Origin: a virus
DNA length: 21,804 bases
Direction: 5' to 3' (one strand)
Virus record (IMG/VR): IMGVR_UViG_3300020147_000028
Location: 1 to 21,804 of that record
In this document: one piece after another, positions 1,696-19,952 of the stretch
Numbering within the stretch: position 1 is the stretch's first letter
Layout of the letters: each line of letters opens with the position of its first letter
Program-made: the position numbers and the translations under genes
Notes under the pieces: generated by a model
The model's input: only the letters and a program-made list of their open reading frames with translations
Told to the model about the DNA's origin: nothing
The model's database searches: none

Positions 1696-2841
1696 TTACG
1701 GGTTGACGGCCCCCGAGCCGTCGGCCCATGCGTTGTCCTGCCAGACGTTCCCGCCCCCGGCGCGGAAGTGTGTCACCGGTCCGTAGAAGCCGCAGCGGGG
1801 GTAGAACTGCTTGCCGAACCGGTTGCCCACGAACCGCACGTTCGTGCCGGGCGGGTCGACCGAGCTGCCTGCGTACGCGCAGTACGAGCCGCCTTGTAGC
1901 AGGTTGCCCTCGACGAGCACGTTGTCGACGGGATCGGAGACGTTGTAGACCACCAAGGCGCCGGAGCAGAACTGGGTCGGCCCGCACTCCAGATGGTTGC
2001 GCCGGAAGGTCATGTTGGCGCCGCCGTTGGAACCGATCGCCGACTCGTGGTCGCCGGCGCGGTGGTCGAAGTCGTGGAGGTACGAATCCTCGATCGTCAC
2101 GTTGAAGCGCGCTGCAGCGCCTCGGCCGGTGCGATGCACGTGGCAGCGGATGCACGTGTAGTTGTCGTCGCCGATGCCGGACTCGTTGTTGGCCAGCGAG
2201 TCCTCGCCGTCGATCTCCACATCCTCCAGCCGTAGCCCGCGCTGGCCGTCCGCGCCGGGTGCGCCCCCGTACCCTGCGTTGACCCTGCCGATCACCTTGG
2301 ATCGTTTGATGGTCACGTCGTCGGCGTCCGGGCCGAGGTAGACCCCGCCAGAGAACAGGCATCCGTCGAGCGTGACCCCCGCCTGGCTGATGTTGCCGTC
2401 GCACGCCCGCAGCGCGGTGCCCGCCGGCACGCCGGTGTTCGTCTCGTTCGGCCAGCCGGCCGGCGCCGTCGTGGGGGCGGTCGCCGGCACGCTCGCGCTC
2501 GCGCTCGGGCCGACGCTCGGGACCGTCGCCGGCAGGAATGCGGACAGGCTGAGCGTGACGGTGCGGCTCGCCCAGGGCTGGGTCTCCGACCGCATGACCC
2601 GCACACGGAACGACGTCGCCGTGACCTGATAGGTGTGCGTGATCGCGGTCAGGCCCTCGGGCGTGACCTGCACGACCGGCACGGCGCCGAGGGAGTGCAC
2701 GAAGGTCTGGGTGCAATGGCCGGTGGCGTTGGTCGTGCACGTCGCCCGGGAGTGCCACTGCGTGACCGGCTCGGCCGCGGCCTGTGCGGCGCATCCGGTG
2801 AGCAGCAGAAGAGCGGCCACCGCCGAGAGGGCGCGGCGCAT
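1696..2841 (-). CDS. Lipobox-bearing right-handed beta-helix protein with N-terminal beta-sandwich
   Basis: Length is 381 residues from the ATG at 2841, which overlaps the upstream stop (ATGA). The frame opens 51 codons earlier, but those codons read as shadow. Residues 1-17 form a lipoprotein signal: MRRA, a hydrophobic run, then L-T-G-C with Cys17 as the lipidation site. Residues 24-103 resemble a small beta-sandwich common in phage tail and secreted proteins (FVHSLGAVPVVQVTP, then TATSFRVRV, then SRTVTLSLSAFLP). Residues 104-130 are a Pro/Ala/Ser/Thr linker. Residues 131-381 are a right-handed parallel beta-helix of the actinobacterial secreted type (NTGVPAGTALR, GIGDDNYTCIRCHVH, YCAYAGSSVDPPG, RCGFYGPVTHF). 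Possible roles are a polysaccharide-binding or depolymerising spike, or a lysogenic conversion lipoprotein exported by the host. No catalytic residues can be assigned. Confidence 0.75.
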   Translation of the reverse strand: MRRALSAVAALLLLTGCAAQAAAEPVTQWHSRATCTTNATGHCTQTFVHSLGAVPVVQVTPEGLTAITHTYQVTATSFRVRVMRSETQPWASRTVTLSLSAFLPATVPSVGPSASASVPATAPTTAPAGWPNETNTGVPAGTALRACDGNISQAGVTLDGCLFSGGVYLGPDADDVTIKRSKVIGRVNAGYGGAPGADGQRGLRLEDVEIDGEDSLANNESGIGDDNYTCIRCHVHRTGRGAAARFNVTIEDSYLHDFDHRAGDHESAIGSNGGANMTFRRNHLECGPTQFCSGALVVYNVSDPVDNVLVEGNLLQGGSYCAYAGSSVDPPGTNVRFVGNRFGKQFYPRCGFYGPVTHFRAGGGNVWQDNAWADGSGAVNP

Positions 2842-3482
2842 CACGAGAAGGTGATCGTCGCGGTGGCGGTCCACGTCTGGCCGGCAGCCTTGGTGCCCTG
2901 CGCAATGCTGGCCTTGCGGTTGAACAACAGCGCGTTGACCGTGGTGCCACCCGTGACCGTGGGCGTACCCACGTCGATGCCGAACTCGTTCCACGCGAAG
3001 TTGCCGTCACCGGTGCCGAACGTCGCCGAGAAGGCGAGCGTCCGGGTGCCGAGCGTGCCTGCGCCGGCAACGGGCTGGAAGTAACGGTTGGCGGCGCCCG
3101 CCGCCGCCTGAAGGTCGGTGTCGGTGTAGGCCTCGGCGGTGTTGGAGTTGCCCACGCCGATGCGCGTCGCGGTGGCCGTGAGTGCCTGGGTCGCGCCCTG
3201 GTTGGTGAGCAGGTTCATCAGGCGCGTCCACCCGGCATTGGTGATCAGGTTGCCGGTCAGCTCGGTGGTCAGGTAGGGCCGGACGCGCAGCGTGGCGAAC
3301 GCGTCGGCGTCCGGCGCCCAGCCGGGCGGCATGATGCCGAGCGCATCGAACTGGCGTGCGGCCCACTTCGTCTGCTCGGCGTCCCACCGGTCGACCCGCC
3401 AGTGCGTCGTGCCGAAGCTCCGCTCGGCCAGCGGCGCGGCATTGCCCACCGACAGCGCGTCAAGCGCTCGTGCCTTGTCCAT
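2841..3482 (-). CDS. Conserved phage tail-associated protein
   Basis: Length is 213 residues. The ATG at 3482 has a strong AAGGAGG six bases upstream. The central and C-terminal part follows a pattern I associate with conserved actinophage and Gram-positive phage tail or fibre-region proteins: LTGNLITNAGWTRLMNLL, then TATRIGVGNSNTAEAYTDTD, then 'FSATFGTGDGNFAWNEFGID' and a terminal 'WTATATITFS'. It probably forms a beta-rich virion component, perhaps a fibre base or decoration. It is the first minus-strand gene after the plus-strand insert at 3528-3824, and its stop overlaps the start of the beta-helix gene, so the two are probably translated together. The family is recognised by pattern only; the biochemical role is not established. 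Confidence 0.7.
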   Translation of the reverse strand: MDKARALDALSVGNAAPLAERSFGTTHWRVDRWDAEQTKWAARQFDALGIMPPGWAPDADAFATLRVRPYLTTELTGNLITNAGWTRLMNLLTNQGATQALTATATRIGVGNSNTAEAYTDTDLQAAAGAANRYFQPVAGAGTLGTRTLAFSATFGTGDGNFAWNEFGIDVGTPTVTGGTTVNALLFNRKASIAQGTKAAGQTWTATATITFS

Positions 3483-3492
3483 GCGGACCTCC

Positions 3493-3528
3493 TTGTGCTG
3501 CTGGCTTAGTGGGGGTACAGTAGAGCCA
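3493..3528 (+). promoter_or_regulatory. Promoter giving a leaderless transcript (copy 1)
   Basis: TTGTGC (3493-3498), a 17-bp spacer and TACAGT (3516-3521) form a sigma70-type promoter. Six bases separate the -10 box from the ATG, so the predicted +1 is the A of the start codon at 3528. No Shine-Dalgarno precedes this ATG. Positions 3506-3531 recur exactly on the minus strand at 19848-19873, in the same position relative to another start codon. Confidence 0.75.
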
Positions 3529-3824
3529 TGACGACGAACGAGGCCCCCGCTTACATCGCTCGCGACACCTACACCGGGCGATACTCAATCCACCGCCCGA
3601 ACGCCAAGGTCCGCGCCGCCCGTTACACCGCTGCCGAACTGGCTGCCATGGCTCCGACCGGAGTCATTTGGGAGTCGTACGGCGCGACGTTCCCCGGCCG
3701 TGAGTCGTTCGGTCGCTCCCGCTACGTAGCCGACGCGGACGGCAACTTGCACATGTACGACAGCAACGGACGCAAGGTGATCGTGCACCCCGCCGGTCGG
3801 GCCATTCGAGTGCTGACGAACTGA
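3528..3824 (+). CDS. Unknown plus-strand moron protein, 98 aa
   Basis: Small gene on the strand opposite its neighbours. It starts on the predicted transcription start of its own promoter and is followed by a 12-bp-stem hairpin, making a self-contained unit between fibre genes. The product begins MTTNEAPAYIARDTYTGRYS, is rich in Arg, Tyr and Ala, and has a predicted beta-strand pattern near the end (YVADADGNLHMYDSNGRKVI). There are no cysteines, membrane segments or catalytic motifs. I do not recognise the family. The context (reverse orientation, private promoter and terminator, location among late genes) fits a moron expressed independently of the late operon. The reading frame has the GC-rich third positions expected of a real gene in this genome. 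Confidence 0.7.
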   Translation: MTTNEAPAYIARDTYTGRYSIHRPNAKVRAARYTAAELAAMAPTGVIWESYGATFPGRESFGRSRYVADADGNLHMYDSNGRKVIVHPAGRAIRVLTN

Positions 3825-3893: not shown

Positions 3894-4778
3894 CTAGAAG
3901 AAGCTTGTCACGATCACGATGCCCGCGGCGCCCGCACCGCCCGCACCGGAGTTGTTCCCGTTCAGCGAGGCGCCGCCACCACCACCGCCACCGCCGTAGA
4001 TGCCACCCGCGGCGCCCGCGCCACCCGCCGCGGTCGTGCTGCTCGCGCCACCTCCCGCGCCTTGGCCGGGGAGCGCGCTGTTGGCCGGCTGTGCCGCGCC
4101 CGCCGTGGCCGCCGCGCCGCCCGCGATGCCGCCTGCCGCCGACGTGCCGGCCATGCCGCTGCCGCCCGCGCCACCGTTGCTCACGGCGTCGGCCGCGCTG
4201 ATGCCGCCCCCCGCCCCGCCGCCCGACGCACCCGCGCCGGGGGTGCCGCCCTGCCCGCCTGCCGCGCCGGTGGCCGACGCCGTGCCACCCACGCCGCCCT
4301 GCCCGCCCGGGGTCGCCGAGGTGCCGCCTGCCGCGCCGGTGGCCGTGCCGCCCGCGCCGCCGTTGCCGCCCGCCGCCCGGACGAAGGTGCCGAAGACGGA
4401 TGCGCCTCCCGCCCCACCAGCCGTCCCATCGGTGCTGTCGGCCGTCGCCGCAGGTCCGGCCGTGCCCGCCGCGCCCACCGTCACGCTGACGGTCGCACCG
4501 AGGGCCGCGGCCGGGATGCTCTTGCTGCTGGCGCTACCGCCCGCCCCGCCGCCGCCACCGGCCCGGATCGTTCCCGCTGCCCCGCGCCGCCCGGATCCGC
4601 CACCGCCGCCGCCACCCACGGTCTCCACCCGCACGGTGACCGCGCCCGCAGGCTTGGTCCACGTGCCGTTGGCCGTGAAGACCTGCACCTCGGCGGTGCG
4701 GGCAGCCGGGCCGCCCTGCCCGCCGGACCCTCCGCCGAAGCGCGCGAAGCCGGTCCGGGCCTTGACCGGCCGCGTCAC
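3894..4778 (-). CDS. Glycine-rich fibre/adhesin-like protein
   Basis: Length is 294 residues from a GTG at 4778 that overlaps the upstream stop (GTGA). The upstream ribosome site is weak, so coupling is likely. After a basic N-terminus, residues 30-52 read VQVFTANGTWTKPAGAVTVR, the typical opening of the phage glycine-rich domain. The rest is dominated by Gly/Ala runs broken by beta-strand segments (IPAAALGATVSVTVGAAG, FGTFVRAAGGNGGAGG) and ends in IVIVTSFF. In known phages such proteins form fibre tips or adhesins built from polyglycine-II-like helices. Here it is the last gene before the convergent terminator. Long proline-rich frames on the opposite strand are shadows of these glycine codons. 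Receptor binding is inferred from family and position. Confidence 0.8.
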   Translation of the reverse strand: MTRPVKARTGFARFGGGSGGQGGPAARTAEVQVFTANGTWTKPAGAVTVRVETVGGGGGGGSGRRGAAGTIRAGGGGGAGGSASSKSIPAAALGATVSVTVGAAGTAGPAATADSTDGTAGGAGGASVFGTFVRAAGGNGGAGGTATGAAGGTSATPGGQGGVGGTASATGAAGGQGGTPGAGASGGGAGGGISAADAVSNGGAGGSGMAGTSAAGGIAGGAAATAGAAQPANSALPGQGAGGGASSTTAAGGAGAAGGIYGGGGGGGGASLNGNNSGAGGAGAAGIVIVTSFF

Positions 4779-10852: not shown

Positions 10853-10874
10853 GGCACCTCCTACGATCAGGGCA
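10839..10874 (+). promoter_or_regulatory. Promoter giving a leaderless transcript for the 10874 gene
   Basis: TACGAT (10862-10867) lies six bases before the ATG at 10874, placing the predicted +1 on the start codon. The -35 region (TCTGCG at 10839-10844 with a 17-bp spacer) is weak. The 15 bases 10863-10877 recur exactly at 19562-19576 on the minus strand, again ending in a start codon. The promoter overlaps the portal start region, so the two divergent genes share about 20 bp. Confidence 0.65.
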
Positions 10875-11626
10875 TGGAGACGATTGACGTGTACGTGCTG
10901 CTGGAAGACGGCGTGGTTCTCGGCGCCGGAACGCACCGCGAGGTCTGCGAGGAGATCGCGGATCGCCGAGTCGGCGAAGGGTGGTCAGCCTGGGTCGACG
11001 ACGGAGGGGCTCGCCGACGTACGCACCGGGTCGACTCCGGCGCGGTACGGAACGAGTCGGAGCAACAGATCGTCCGCGTACCGCTGGCCGGCTACACGCC
11101 GCCGCGCAGCTACCACGCGAGCGGGTGGGCGAGGGACATCACGACGAGTCCGGCGCTGGTCGATTTCTTCAAGCGCTTCCGGCCGCCGATCGCGACGCCA
11201 GACCTCCCCGAGACATTCGACATCGGCCGGATGCGGGAGGTGATCCACGAACTGCACGAGAAAGGCACGCATGTCGATGCCGTGAAGGTCGGCGAGGGTC
11301 CCGCGTGGTCGTGGCTCAAGGCCGGGCTCGACAAGCTCCCCCGCTACCCGAGCAGCCGACTGATGCCGGACTCGCACACAGCGGCGATGATCTGGGGGCT
11401 GCCCGTCGTGCTCGATCCGAACGTGCCTGAGGACGAGATCCACATGGGCGGCGTCGTGTTCATCGTCGGCCATGACGGAGGGCTTGTGCCGACCGGGCAG
11501 GTGGTCCGGATCGACCAGGGAGAGATGCGGCGGATCGTCCGCGAGAACTTCGAGCGCGACCTTCGCAAGCACCTGCGGCTCGGCCGCGACGACCCGGGCT
11601 TCACCAATCCACCGTCGCGAGATTGA
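10874..11626 (+). CDS. Unknown plus-strand protein, 250 aa, between terminase and portal
   Basis: It runs against the surrounding head operon. It starts leaderless at METIDVYVLLEDGVVLGAGT and ends in NPPSRD, overlapping the 3' end of the large terminase gene by 26 bp tail to tail. The first 60 residues form a compact alpha/beta segment (VYVLLEDGVVLGAGTHREVC), followed by an Arg-rich linker. Residues about 85-250 are mixed, with 'SSRLMPDSHTAAMIWGLPVV' then LDPNVPEDEIHMGG, and a basic helical tail (GEMRRIVRENFERDLRKHLR). No catalytic motif or membrane segment is visible. The G-LPVV-DP-VP pattern recalls loops of phage capsid-like proteins, but this is too weak for a call. Orientation and private promoter suggest a moron inserted between packaging and portal genes. 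Confidence 0.75.
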   Translation: METIDVYVLLEDGVVLGAGTHREVCEEIADRRVGEGWSAWVDDGGARRRTHRVDSGAVRNESEQQIVRVPLAGYTPPRSYHASGWARDITTSPALVDFFKRFRPPIATPDLPETFDIGRMREVIHELHEKGTHVDAVKVGEGPAWSWLKAGLDKLPRYPSSRLMPDSHTAAMIWGLPVVLDPNVPEDEIHMGGVVFIVGHDGGLVPTGQVVRIDQGEMRRIVRENFERDLRKHLRLGRDDPGFTNPPSRD

Positions 11627-19629: not shown

Positions 19630-19851
19630 TCAGACGTAGTGCTCGACGACGACGGGGATGGACTCGGGATCGTAGGCCGGAACCGCGCGCCAACGGCCCC
19701 CCGCGTCGACAACGATGCCGCGCGGATGCGTCTCCTTGCACGTTCCTCCATGGCCGCCGAGGTCGGCGGCGGGGCAGGGGAGGAGCATGTCGCCGCGTGC
19801 TGCATGGAAGTCGGCGGACCATGCGCTCTGTTGTGCGTTCCCGTTGTTCAT
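19630..19851 (-). CDS. Unknown protein, 73 aa, leaderless start
   Basis: ATG at 19851 coincides with the predicted +1 of its own promoter; terminator A lies upstream and terminator B downstream, so it is a single-gene transcript. The product MNNGNAQQSAWSADFHAARG continues with 'DMLLPCPAADLGGHGGTCKE', then a beta segment (GIVVDAGGRWRAVPAYDP) and IPVVVEHYV. Cys26, His34, Cys38 and nearby His residues may bind metal. Independent control suggests expression at a different time from the flanking operons. Function unknown. Confidence 0.7.
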   Translation of the reverse strand: MNNGNAQQSAWSADFHAARGDMLLPCPAADLGGHGGTCKETHPRGIVVDAGGRWRAVPAYDPESIPVVVEHYV

Positions 19852-19886
19852 GGCTCTACTGTACCCCCACTAATCTCTAACCGCAA
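19851..19886 (-). promoter_or_regulatory. Promoter giving a leaderless transcript (copy 2)
   Basis: Minus strand: TTGCGG (19881-19886), a 17-bp spacer, TACAGT (19858-19863), then six bases to the ATG. Positions 19848-19873 repeat 3506-3531 exactly, while the -35 boxes differ (TTGCGG versus TTGTGC). The -35 directly follows the terminator A tail. Confidence 0.75.
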
Positions 19887-19897
19887 GCACGAGAAAG

Positions 19898-19920
19898 CCC
19901 CCGGTCGCGATGACCGGGGG
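19898..19920 (-). terminator. Intrinsic terminator A
   Basis: CCCCCGGTC (19898-19906) pairs with GACCGGGGG (19912-19920), a perfect 9-bp stem with a five-base loop, followed on the minus strand by CTTTCTCGTGC. It lies about 30 bases after the DUF397-like stop at 19953. The downstream 15 bases (19887-19901) equal those of terminator B (19578-19592). Confidence 0.75.
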
Positions 19921-19952
19921 CCGTTACCGTCGCCGCCGAGCGGCTTGGTAGC

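What the first reader, a model, noticed from the sequence alone, without database searches (positions are those of the whole stretch)
3506..3531. 26-bp promoter/start-codon unit duplicated on opposite strands 16 kb apart
Positions 3506-3531 (+) are identical to the minus strand at 19848-19873, covering the -10 box, the start codon and one base beyond, while the -35 boxes and the coding regions differ. The genes downstream are unrelated in sequence, so the unit was moved or preserved as a regulatory module rather than by gene duplication.
Basis: seen in the sequence. Interest (0 to 1): 0.7.

Follow-up and report, generated by a model that had tools for sequence, protein, structure and literature searches.

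The report
Phage-wide leaderless promoter with embedded operator
The repeated 26 letters are two copies of a gene switch that an uncultured group of phages uses 7 to 14 times per genome: a start signal whose message begins at the first codon, fused to a short tag that differs between phages but matches within each phage, as expected if one phage protein controls all copies.

Summary
It is not a private duplication. Both copies belong to a promoter family recurring 7-14 times in each of six related 65-71 kb phage contigs. The core GGGGGTACAGT, or a phage-specific variant, is the most over-represented 11-mer in most of them.

Sixty sites were catalogued in nine records; 52 remain after setting aside four palindromes. 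None of the 52 lies inside a called gene. Forty have a -35 TTG exactly 17 or 18 bp before TACAGT. The next start codon is usually exactly 6 nt downstream (leaderless) or 23-39 nt. The bases before GTACAGT differ by phage (GGGG, GGGA, GTGG), even before orthologous genes, while -35 and -10 stay fixed. At one conserved small gene's promoter, two half-sites flank the -10.

Best reading: a sigma-70-type promoter with an embedded operator half-site for a phage regulator, not yet identified. In the window one copy heads a moron-like 98-aa gene, the other a 73-aa ORFan behind a terminator. It works like cluster K ESAS promoters and L5 operators but is neither by sequence. Promoter and operator activity are inferred, not measured.

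The parts
3506..3531 (+). 26-bp unit, copy A: spacer end, -10, 6 nt, ATG and one base
   Evidence: exact identity with copy B
3493..3498 (+). -35 TTGTGC of copy A, 17-bp spacer
   Evidence: sequence; spacing scan
3510..3521 (+). core TGGGGGTACAGT: putative operator half-site TGGGGG joined to the -10 TACAGT (3516-3521)
   Evidence: recurs in relatives with phage-specific variants
3528..3824 (+). 98-aa gene of family phrog_8588, predicted leaderless, reverse to the surrounding structural operon (moron-like)
2841..3482 (-). 213-aa gene on the left of copy A, structural operon (phrog_23653, function unknown)
3894..4778 (-). 294-aa gene on the right of the 98-aa gene, structural operon
19848..19873 (-). 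26-bp unit, copy B
19881..19886 (-). -35 TTGCGG of copy B, 17-bp spacer
   Evidence: sequence
19858..19869 (-). core TGGGGGTACAGT of copy B, -10 at 19858-19863
19896..19922 (-). GC-rich hairpin followed by TTTCT, likely intrinsic terminator of the upstream unit; conserved in G001 and G002
19630..19851 (-). 73-aa ORFan, predicted leaderless, no relative found

Best explanation
The 26-bp unit is a sigma-70-type promoter (-35 TTG(C/T)G, 17-18 bp, -10 TACAGT) read by host RNA polymerase. In both window copies the -10 is placed so that the transcript would start at the A of the ATG (leaderless). The G-tract against the -10 (TGGGGGTACAGT) is a half-site for a phage-encoded DNA-binding regulator, most likely a repressor that covers the -10. 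The same half-site sits at every member of the family, so one regulator can control many scattered accessory and early units together. Gene family F028 (64-82 aa) has two half-sites around the -10 of its own promoter and is the leading but unproven regulator candidate. Shown from sequence: anatomy, repetition, placement, spacing, per-phage concerted variation. Inferred: promoter activity, leaderless start, operator function, repression rather than activation, and the regulator's identity.
For: 1) Over-represented 11-mers: G001 ACTGTACCCCC 14 seen, 0.02 expected; G007 ACTGTACTCCC 10 vs 0.02; G010 GTGGGTACAGT 8 vs 0.01. 2) Of 52 sites, none inside a called gene; TTG at spacing 17 (30) or 18 (10), never at 14-16 or 19-21; next called gene exactly 6 nt away for 14 and 23-39 nt for 27; read directly, 17 sites have ATG exactly 6 nt after the -10. 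3) In G000-G002 a scan for TTG-N20-TANNNT without any G requirement gave 13 hits, all with the G-tract. 4) Variants sort by phage: GGGG in G000/G001/G002/G009/G021, GGGA at promoters of G007 and G008, GTGG or GTAG in G010 and G003; 0 of 20000 permutations as ordered; orthologous genes F054, F053, F098, F102, F105 carry the variant of their own phage. 5) In G001, G002, G007, G008 and G010 two half-sites face each other 22-28 nt before F028, and in G009 two direct GGGGGTACA sites flank TATAGT there, so the half-site is kept where it is not the -10. 6) No sigma-70 region 2 in seven records, control positive.
Against: No transcript or binding data. Sites were collected by their GTACAGT, so -10 perfection is ascertainment. 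G008's F028 palindrome is GGGG-type while its promoters are GGGA-type. No integrase or ParA found, so a lysogeny repressor is not assured. F028 has no significant hit to a DNA-binding family and its model is low-confidence. Genes were called with my own simple caller. The window lacks the early region, so F028 cannot be seen in this phage.
Confidence: 0.72

Rival explanations
1. Plain host promoter with no phage regulator. The G-tract improves promoter strength or spacer shape, and copies stay alike because they are spread by recombination within each phage (promoter capture, gene conversion).
For: Spacing and hexamers are those of a sigma-70 promoter. Copies head many orphan genes: 30 of 48 against 36% of small genes. 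The first five codons ATGACGACGAACGAG are shared by the window 98-aa gene and an unrelated G001 gene, showing that the promoter with the gene start can be exchanged.
Against: Half-sites are kept around the F028 -10 where they are not part of a -35/-10 pair. Orthologous promoters shift variant with the phage while the rest of the spacer differs. Sites inside one phage share the core but not the outer spacer, which recombination would also copy.
Confidence: 0.17
2. Target of a phage-encoded activator or modified RNA polymerase: the G-tract is needed for phage-timed positive control.
For: A repeated phage-specific consensus that includes spacer bases; no such motif in cellular genomes beyond chance-level single hits.
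Against: The -35/-10 and spacing already look complete. No sigma-70 region 2 found. The single-subunit RNA polymerase search was uninformative because its control was silent.
Confidence: 0.1
3. The identity of the two window copies reflects one recent intragenomic transfer.
For: 26 of 26 identity, including the 6 nt before ATG and the T T A upstream.
Against: Copy B has an ortholog in G001 with 25 of 26 bases; G001 and G002 have the same AGAGCCATGA at yet another junction, so this is a clade consensus.
Confidence: 0.1

Closest known systems
Cluster K mycobacteriophage SAS/ESAS elements (PMC3203893, PMC11373665)
   Same: Repeated intergenic phage elements at starts of small genes; ESAS hold SigA-like hexamers 17-18 bp apart, vary between subclusters, and are suggested to be bound by a regulator. 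The cluster K homologue of the window's 98-aa gene (SoSeph gp93) has an exact SAS.
   Different: Different sequence; SAS absent here; no inverted repeat at each site; the half-site is fused to the -10; many copies predicted leaderless.
L5-type operators/stoperators of cluster A phages (PMC9283540, PMC6550527)
   Same: Short asymmetric sites across the genome, oriented with transcription, whose motif differs between phages together with the repressor.
   Different: 20-30 sites, mostly not at promoters; here 7-14 and nearly all at promoters; different sequence.
Leaderless SigA-like promoters and 17-bp repeats of cluster O phages (PMC4351075)
   Same: Promoters predicted to start at the first base of the start codon, one for a reverse gene within the structural operon.
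   Different: The cluster O repeat is a separate palindrome, not fused to the promoter; absent here.
Promoters of cultured phages Pinnie and Zipp
   Same: Pinnie gp58 and Zipp gp8, homologues of the window gene, have TTGCGC or TTGACT, 18 bp, TACAGT, then ATG 6-7 nt on; Pinnie has three and Zipp two look-alikes.
   Different: Few copies, other spacer bases, not over-represented genome-wide.

Membership tests
Cluster K SAS | 13-bp GGGATAGGAGCCC just before many start codons | tested here: not met
   0-1 match per genome even with 2 mismatches, six genomes
Cluster K ESAS | SigA-like hexamers 17-18 bp apart in several intergenic repeats | tested here: met
   30 sites at 17 and 10 at 18 bp
Cluster K ESAS | imperfect 15-17 bp inverted repeat at each site | tested here: not met
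   core is asymmetric at promoters; facing half-sites only before F028
L5-type stoperator | 13-bp consensus GGTGGMTGTCAAG | tested here: not met
   no exact match and at most one 1-mismatch site per genome
L5-type stoperator | asymmetric sites oriented with transcription | tested here: met
   44 of 52 sites lie within 60 nt upstream of a same-strand gene
L5-type stoperator | most sites away from promoters, blocking elongation | tested here: not met
   40 of 52 have a correctly spaced -35 TTG
L5-type stoperator | cognate two-domain Rep repressor | not tested
   no homology search with Rep was run
Leaderless promoter | -10 placed so that +1 is the first base of the start codon | tested here: met
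   6 nt between -10 and ATG at both window copies and 15 other sites
Leaderless promoter | mRNA 5' end mapped at the start codon | not testable with these tools
   needs dRNA-seq
Ribbon-helix-helix regulators (considered for F028) | match to Arc or RHH_1 profiles, or that fold | tested here: inconclusive
   no F028 match to PF03869 or PF01402; model pLDDT 61 and no fold match

The most novel reading that the evidence does not exclude
An undescribed actinophage-type regulatory system: one small phage protein of an unknown DNA-binding family reads a half-site built into the -10 of 7-14 leaderless or leadered promoters. This makes a phage-specific regulon that gains new orphan genes by promoter capture, and its specificity shifts in concert between phages.
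Probability: 0.35. Interest if true: 0.68.

Novelty: new variant of a known kind. Interest (0 to 1): 0.5.

Why it matters
Promoters and immunity or timing regulators of most actinobacterial phages are unknown. Here the sequence alone gives a regulon, its promoter grammar and three specificity variants, so the regulator can be found by a direct binding test. It also marks accessory genes that would otherwise be missed, and shows how a new gene may join a phage's control circuit by acquiring a 30-bp promoter.

Tried and rejected
Special duplication within the window: rejected, because the core recurs across the clade. IMG/VR hits L015, L016, L019 and L020 to the 17-mer are 30-33% GC contigs with the match in unrelated sequence: chance. 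Cellular genomes: 0 hits for the 17-mer; 105 hits for the looser TTGC-N13/14-TGGGRGTACAGT are scattered single matches across unrelated phyla, about what size predicts. Palindrome before F028 as a terminator: it can form a hairpin with a T-run in G001 and G002, but G007 and G010 lack the T-run and TTG..-N17/18-GATAAT fits a promoter in G001, G002, G007 and G008, so I prefer operator around a -10. F028 as ribbon-helix-helix: suggested by its NFRCP-W pattern, not supported by profiles, PDB sequences or fold search. F032 as helix-turn-helix: no profile hit, model pLDDT 49. Known SAS, stoperator and cluster O repeats: absent. Integrase, serine recombinase and ParA: none. Rfam and tRNA: none in the window. 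A first run of the site statistics had a coordinate-offset bug and was replaced. The relatives without the motif could not be used as controls: G005 shares mainly structural genes with the others.

Full report
Where we are. The window is a 21.8-kb IMG/VR phage fragment, 70% G+C, with leftward head and packaging genes: large terminase, portal, protease, major capsid. It has no close record among cultured phages. The capsid is 90% identical to that of IMGVR_UViG_3300049578_000049 (G002). Handles used here: G001 = IMGVR_UViG_3300023274_000002 (70.6 kb), G002 (69.4 kb), G007 = 3300046715_000149, G008 = 3300046713_000250, G009 = 3300045391_001864, G010 = 3300037439_000116, plus fragments G003 and G021. 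F-numbers are my own protein families. The host is not known; high G+C and gene relatives in Mycobacterium and Gordonia phages suggest an actinobacterium.

The observation. The 26 bases are identical at 3506-3531(+) and 19873-19848(-), and a 21-base part has no third copy with up to 3 mismatches and none in 100 shuffles. Each has TTG exactly 17 bp before TACAGT, and ATG 6 nt after it. With the usual 7-nt distance from the -10 to +1 this puts the start of transcription on the A of the ATG (inference).

It is a family. GGGGTACAGT occurs 14 times in G001 and 8 times in G002, with 0 expected. The core or its variant is the top over-represented 11-mer in G001, G002, G007, G009 and G010, and among the top ones in G008. 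In G000-G002, scanning for TTG-N20-TANNNT with no G requirement gave 13 hits and every one had the G-tract.

Placement. I catalogued 60 sites in nine records; 52 remain after setting aside eight arms of four palindromes (the G010 palindrome has a wider gap and its two arms are among the 52). None of the 52 is inside a called gene. Forty have TTG at 17 (30) or 18 (10) bp and none at other spacings from 14 to 21. The next gene begins exactly 6 nt after the -10 for 14 sites and 23-39 nt for 27; read directly, 17 have ATG at 6 nt. So there are two classes, leaderless and ribosome-site leadered. Downstream genes are orphans in 30 of 48 cases against 36% of genes up to 150 aa, Fisher p about 1e-4.

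Concerted variation. The four bases before GTACAGT are GGGG in G000, G001, G002, G009 and G021, GGGA at promoters of G007 and G008, and GTGG (twice GTAG) in G010 and G003. Shuffling the variants among sites never gave equal order in 20000 tries. Orthologous downstream genes keep the site but carry their phage's variant: F054 is GGGG in G002, GGGA in G007 and G008, GTGG in G010; likewise F053, F098, F102, F105. The -35 and -10 do not change. A sigma factor alone does not predict that; a phage-specific binding protein does. One exception: G008's F028 palindrome is GGGG.

The F028 promoter. In G001, G002, G007, G008 and G010 two half-sites face each other 22-28 nt before F028, a 79-82 aa protein; in the first four they enclose GATAAT, itself 17-18 bp from a TTG. 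In G009 two direct GGGGGTACA copies flank TATAGT before F028. So the half-site is kept where it is not part of the -10. This is the main reason to call it an operator and F028 an autoregulated candidate. F028 has no detectable relative in phage or plasmid records and no recognised fold.

The two window copies. Copy B lies behind a strong hairpin plus TTTCT. The hairpin and the gene before it are conserved in G001 and G002; the promoter is conserved in G001 (25 of 26) but the gene after it is unrelated; in G002 the promoter is absent. Copy A heads a rightward 98-aa gene inside the leftward structural operon, between the 213-aa and 294-aa genes. In G001 and G002 the same promoter heads other genes at another junction, between the 97-aa and 175/176-aa genes. 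The window 98-aa gene and the G001 gene share promoter, ATG and four further codons (37 bp in all) and then diverge. This is what exchange of promoter-borne moron-like genes would leave.

Cultured relatives of the 98-aa gene. It belongs to phrog_8588, with homologues in 43 Mycobacterium and Gordonia phage records. SoSeph gp93 carries an exact cluster K SAS; Pinnie gp58 has TTGCGC-N18-TACAGT-6 nt-ATG; Zipp gp8 has TTGACT-N18-TACAGT-7 nt-ATG. The same gene thus sits under each phage's own type of start-associated promoter.

Known systems. ESAS of cluster K contain SigA-like hexamers 17-18 bp apart plus an inverted repeat, possibly a regulator's site (PMC11373665; PMC3203893). L5 repressor sites are asymmetric, follow transcription and differ between phages with the repressor (PMC9283540, PMC6550527). 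Cluster O phages have predicted leaderless promoters (PMC4351075). The present element shares the logic but not the sequence of any of them, hence a new variant of a known kind.

What is shown and what is not. Shown: identity, recurrence, spacing, placement, per-phage variants, orthology of copy B, changing genes after both copies. Inferred: promoter activity, leaderless translation, operator function, repression, F028 as regulator. No experiment bears on it yet.

Noticed in passing
L078-L080 (G009) and L216:2381, L216:1260, L225:286: In G009 and in IMGVR_UViG_3300028831_000585 the promoters carry an additional inverted repeat on the -35: GCAAGNNNCTTGC in G009, GCAAC..GTTGC in the other. Possibly a second operator.
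   Followed up: partly
L022:17687 (G001), L025:17555 (G002), G007:9605, G008:34247, G010:4398: Conserved divergent region with GTACGTACAGT (GGTACAGT in G010) and CTTGCGCAAG-like repeats between F051 and F032; perhaps the central control region.
   Followed up: no
L023:5186-7649 (G001), L026:5274-7773 (G002): A 69-73 aa MerR/excisionase-like HTH_17 protein is followed by a 756-769 aa FtsK/SpoIIIE-like protein; no integrase found. Unusual maintenance or transfer is possible.
   Followed up: partly
L075:8811-8838 (G008 28811-28838): The F028 palindrome is GGGG-type while the other sites of G008 are GGGA-type: mosaic or relaxed specificity.
   Followed up: no
window 10874-11626 (+): A 250-aa rightward ORF between portal and terminase genes, also present in G001 and G002 at the same place, without the GGGGTACAGT promoter.
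   Followed up: no
L024:1958-2010 (G001), L027:1340-1390 (G002): The moron-like promoters at G001 61988 and G002 41353 lie between CTCTCGT and ACGAGAG arms, an inverted repeat around the core.
   Followed up: no
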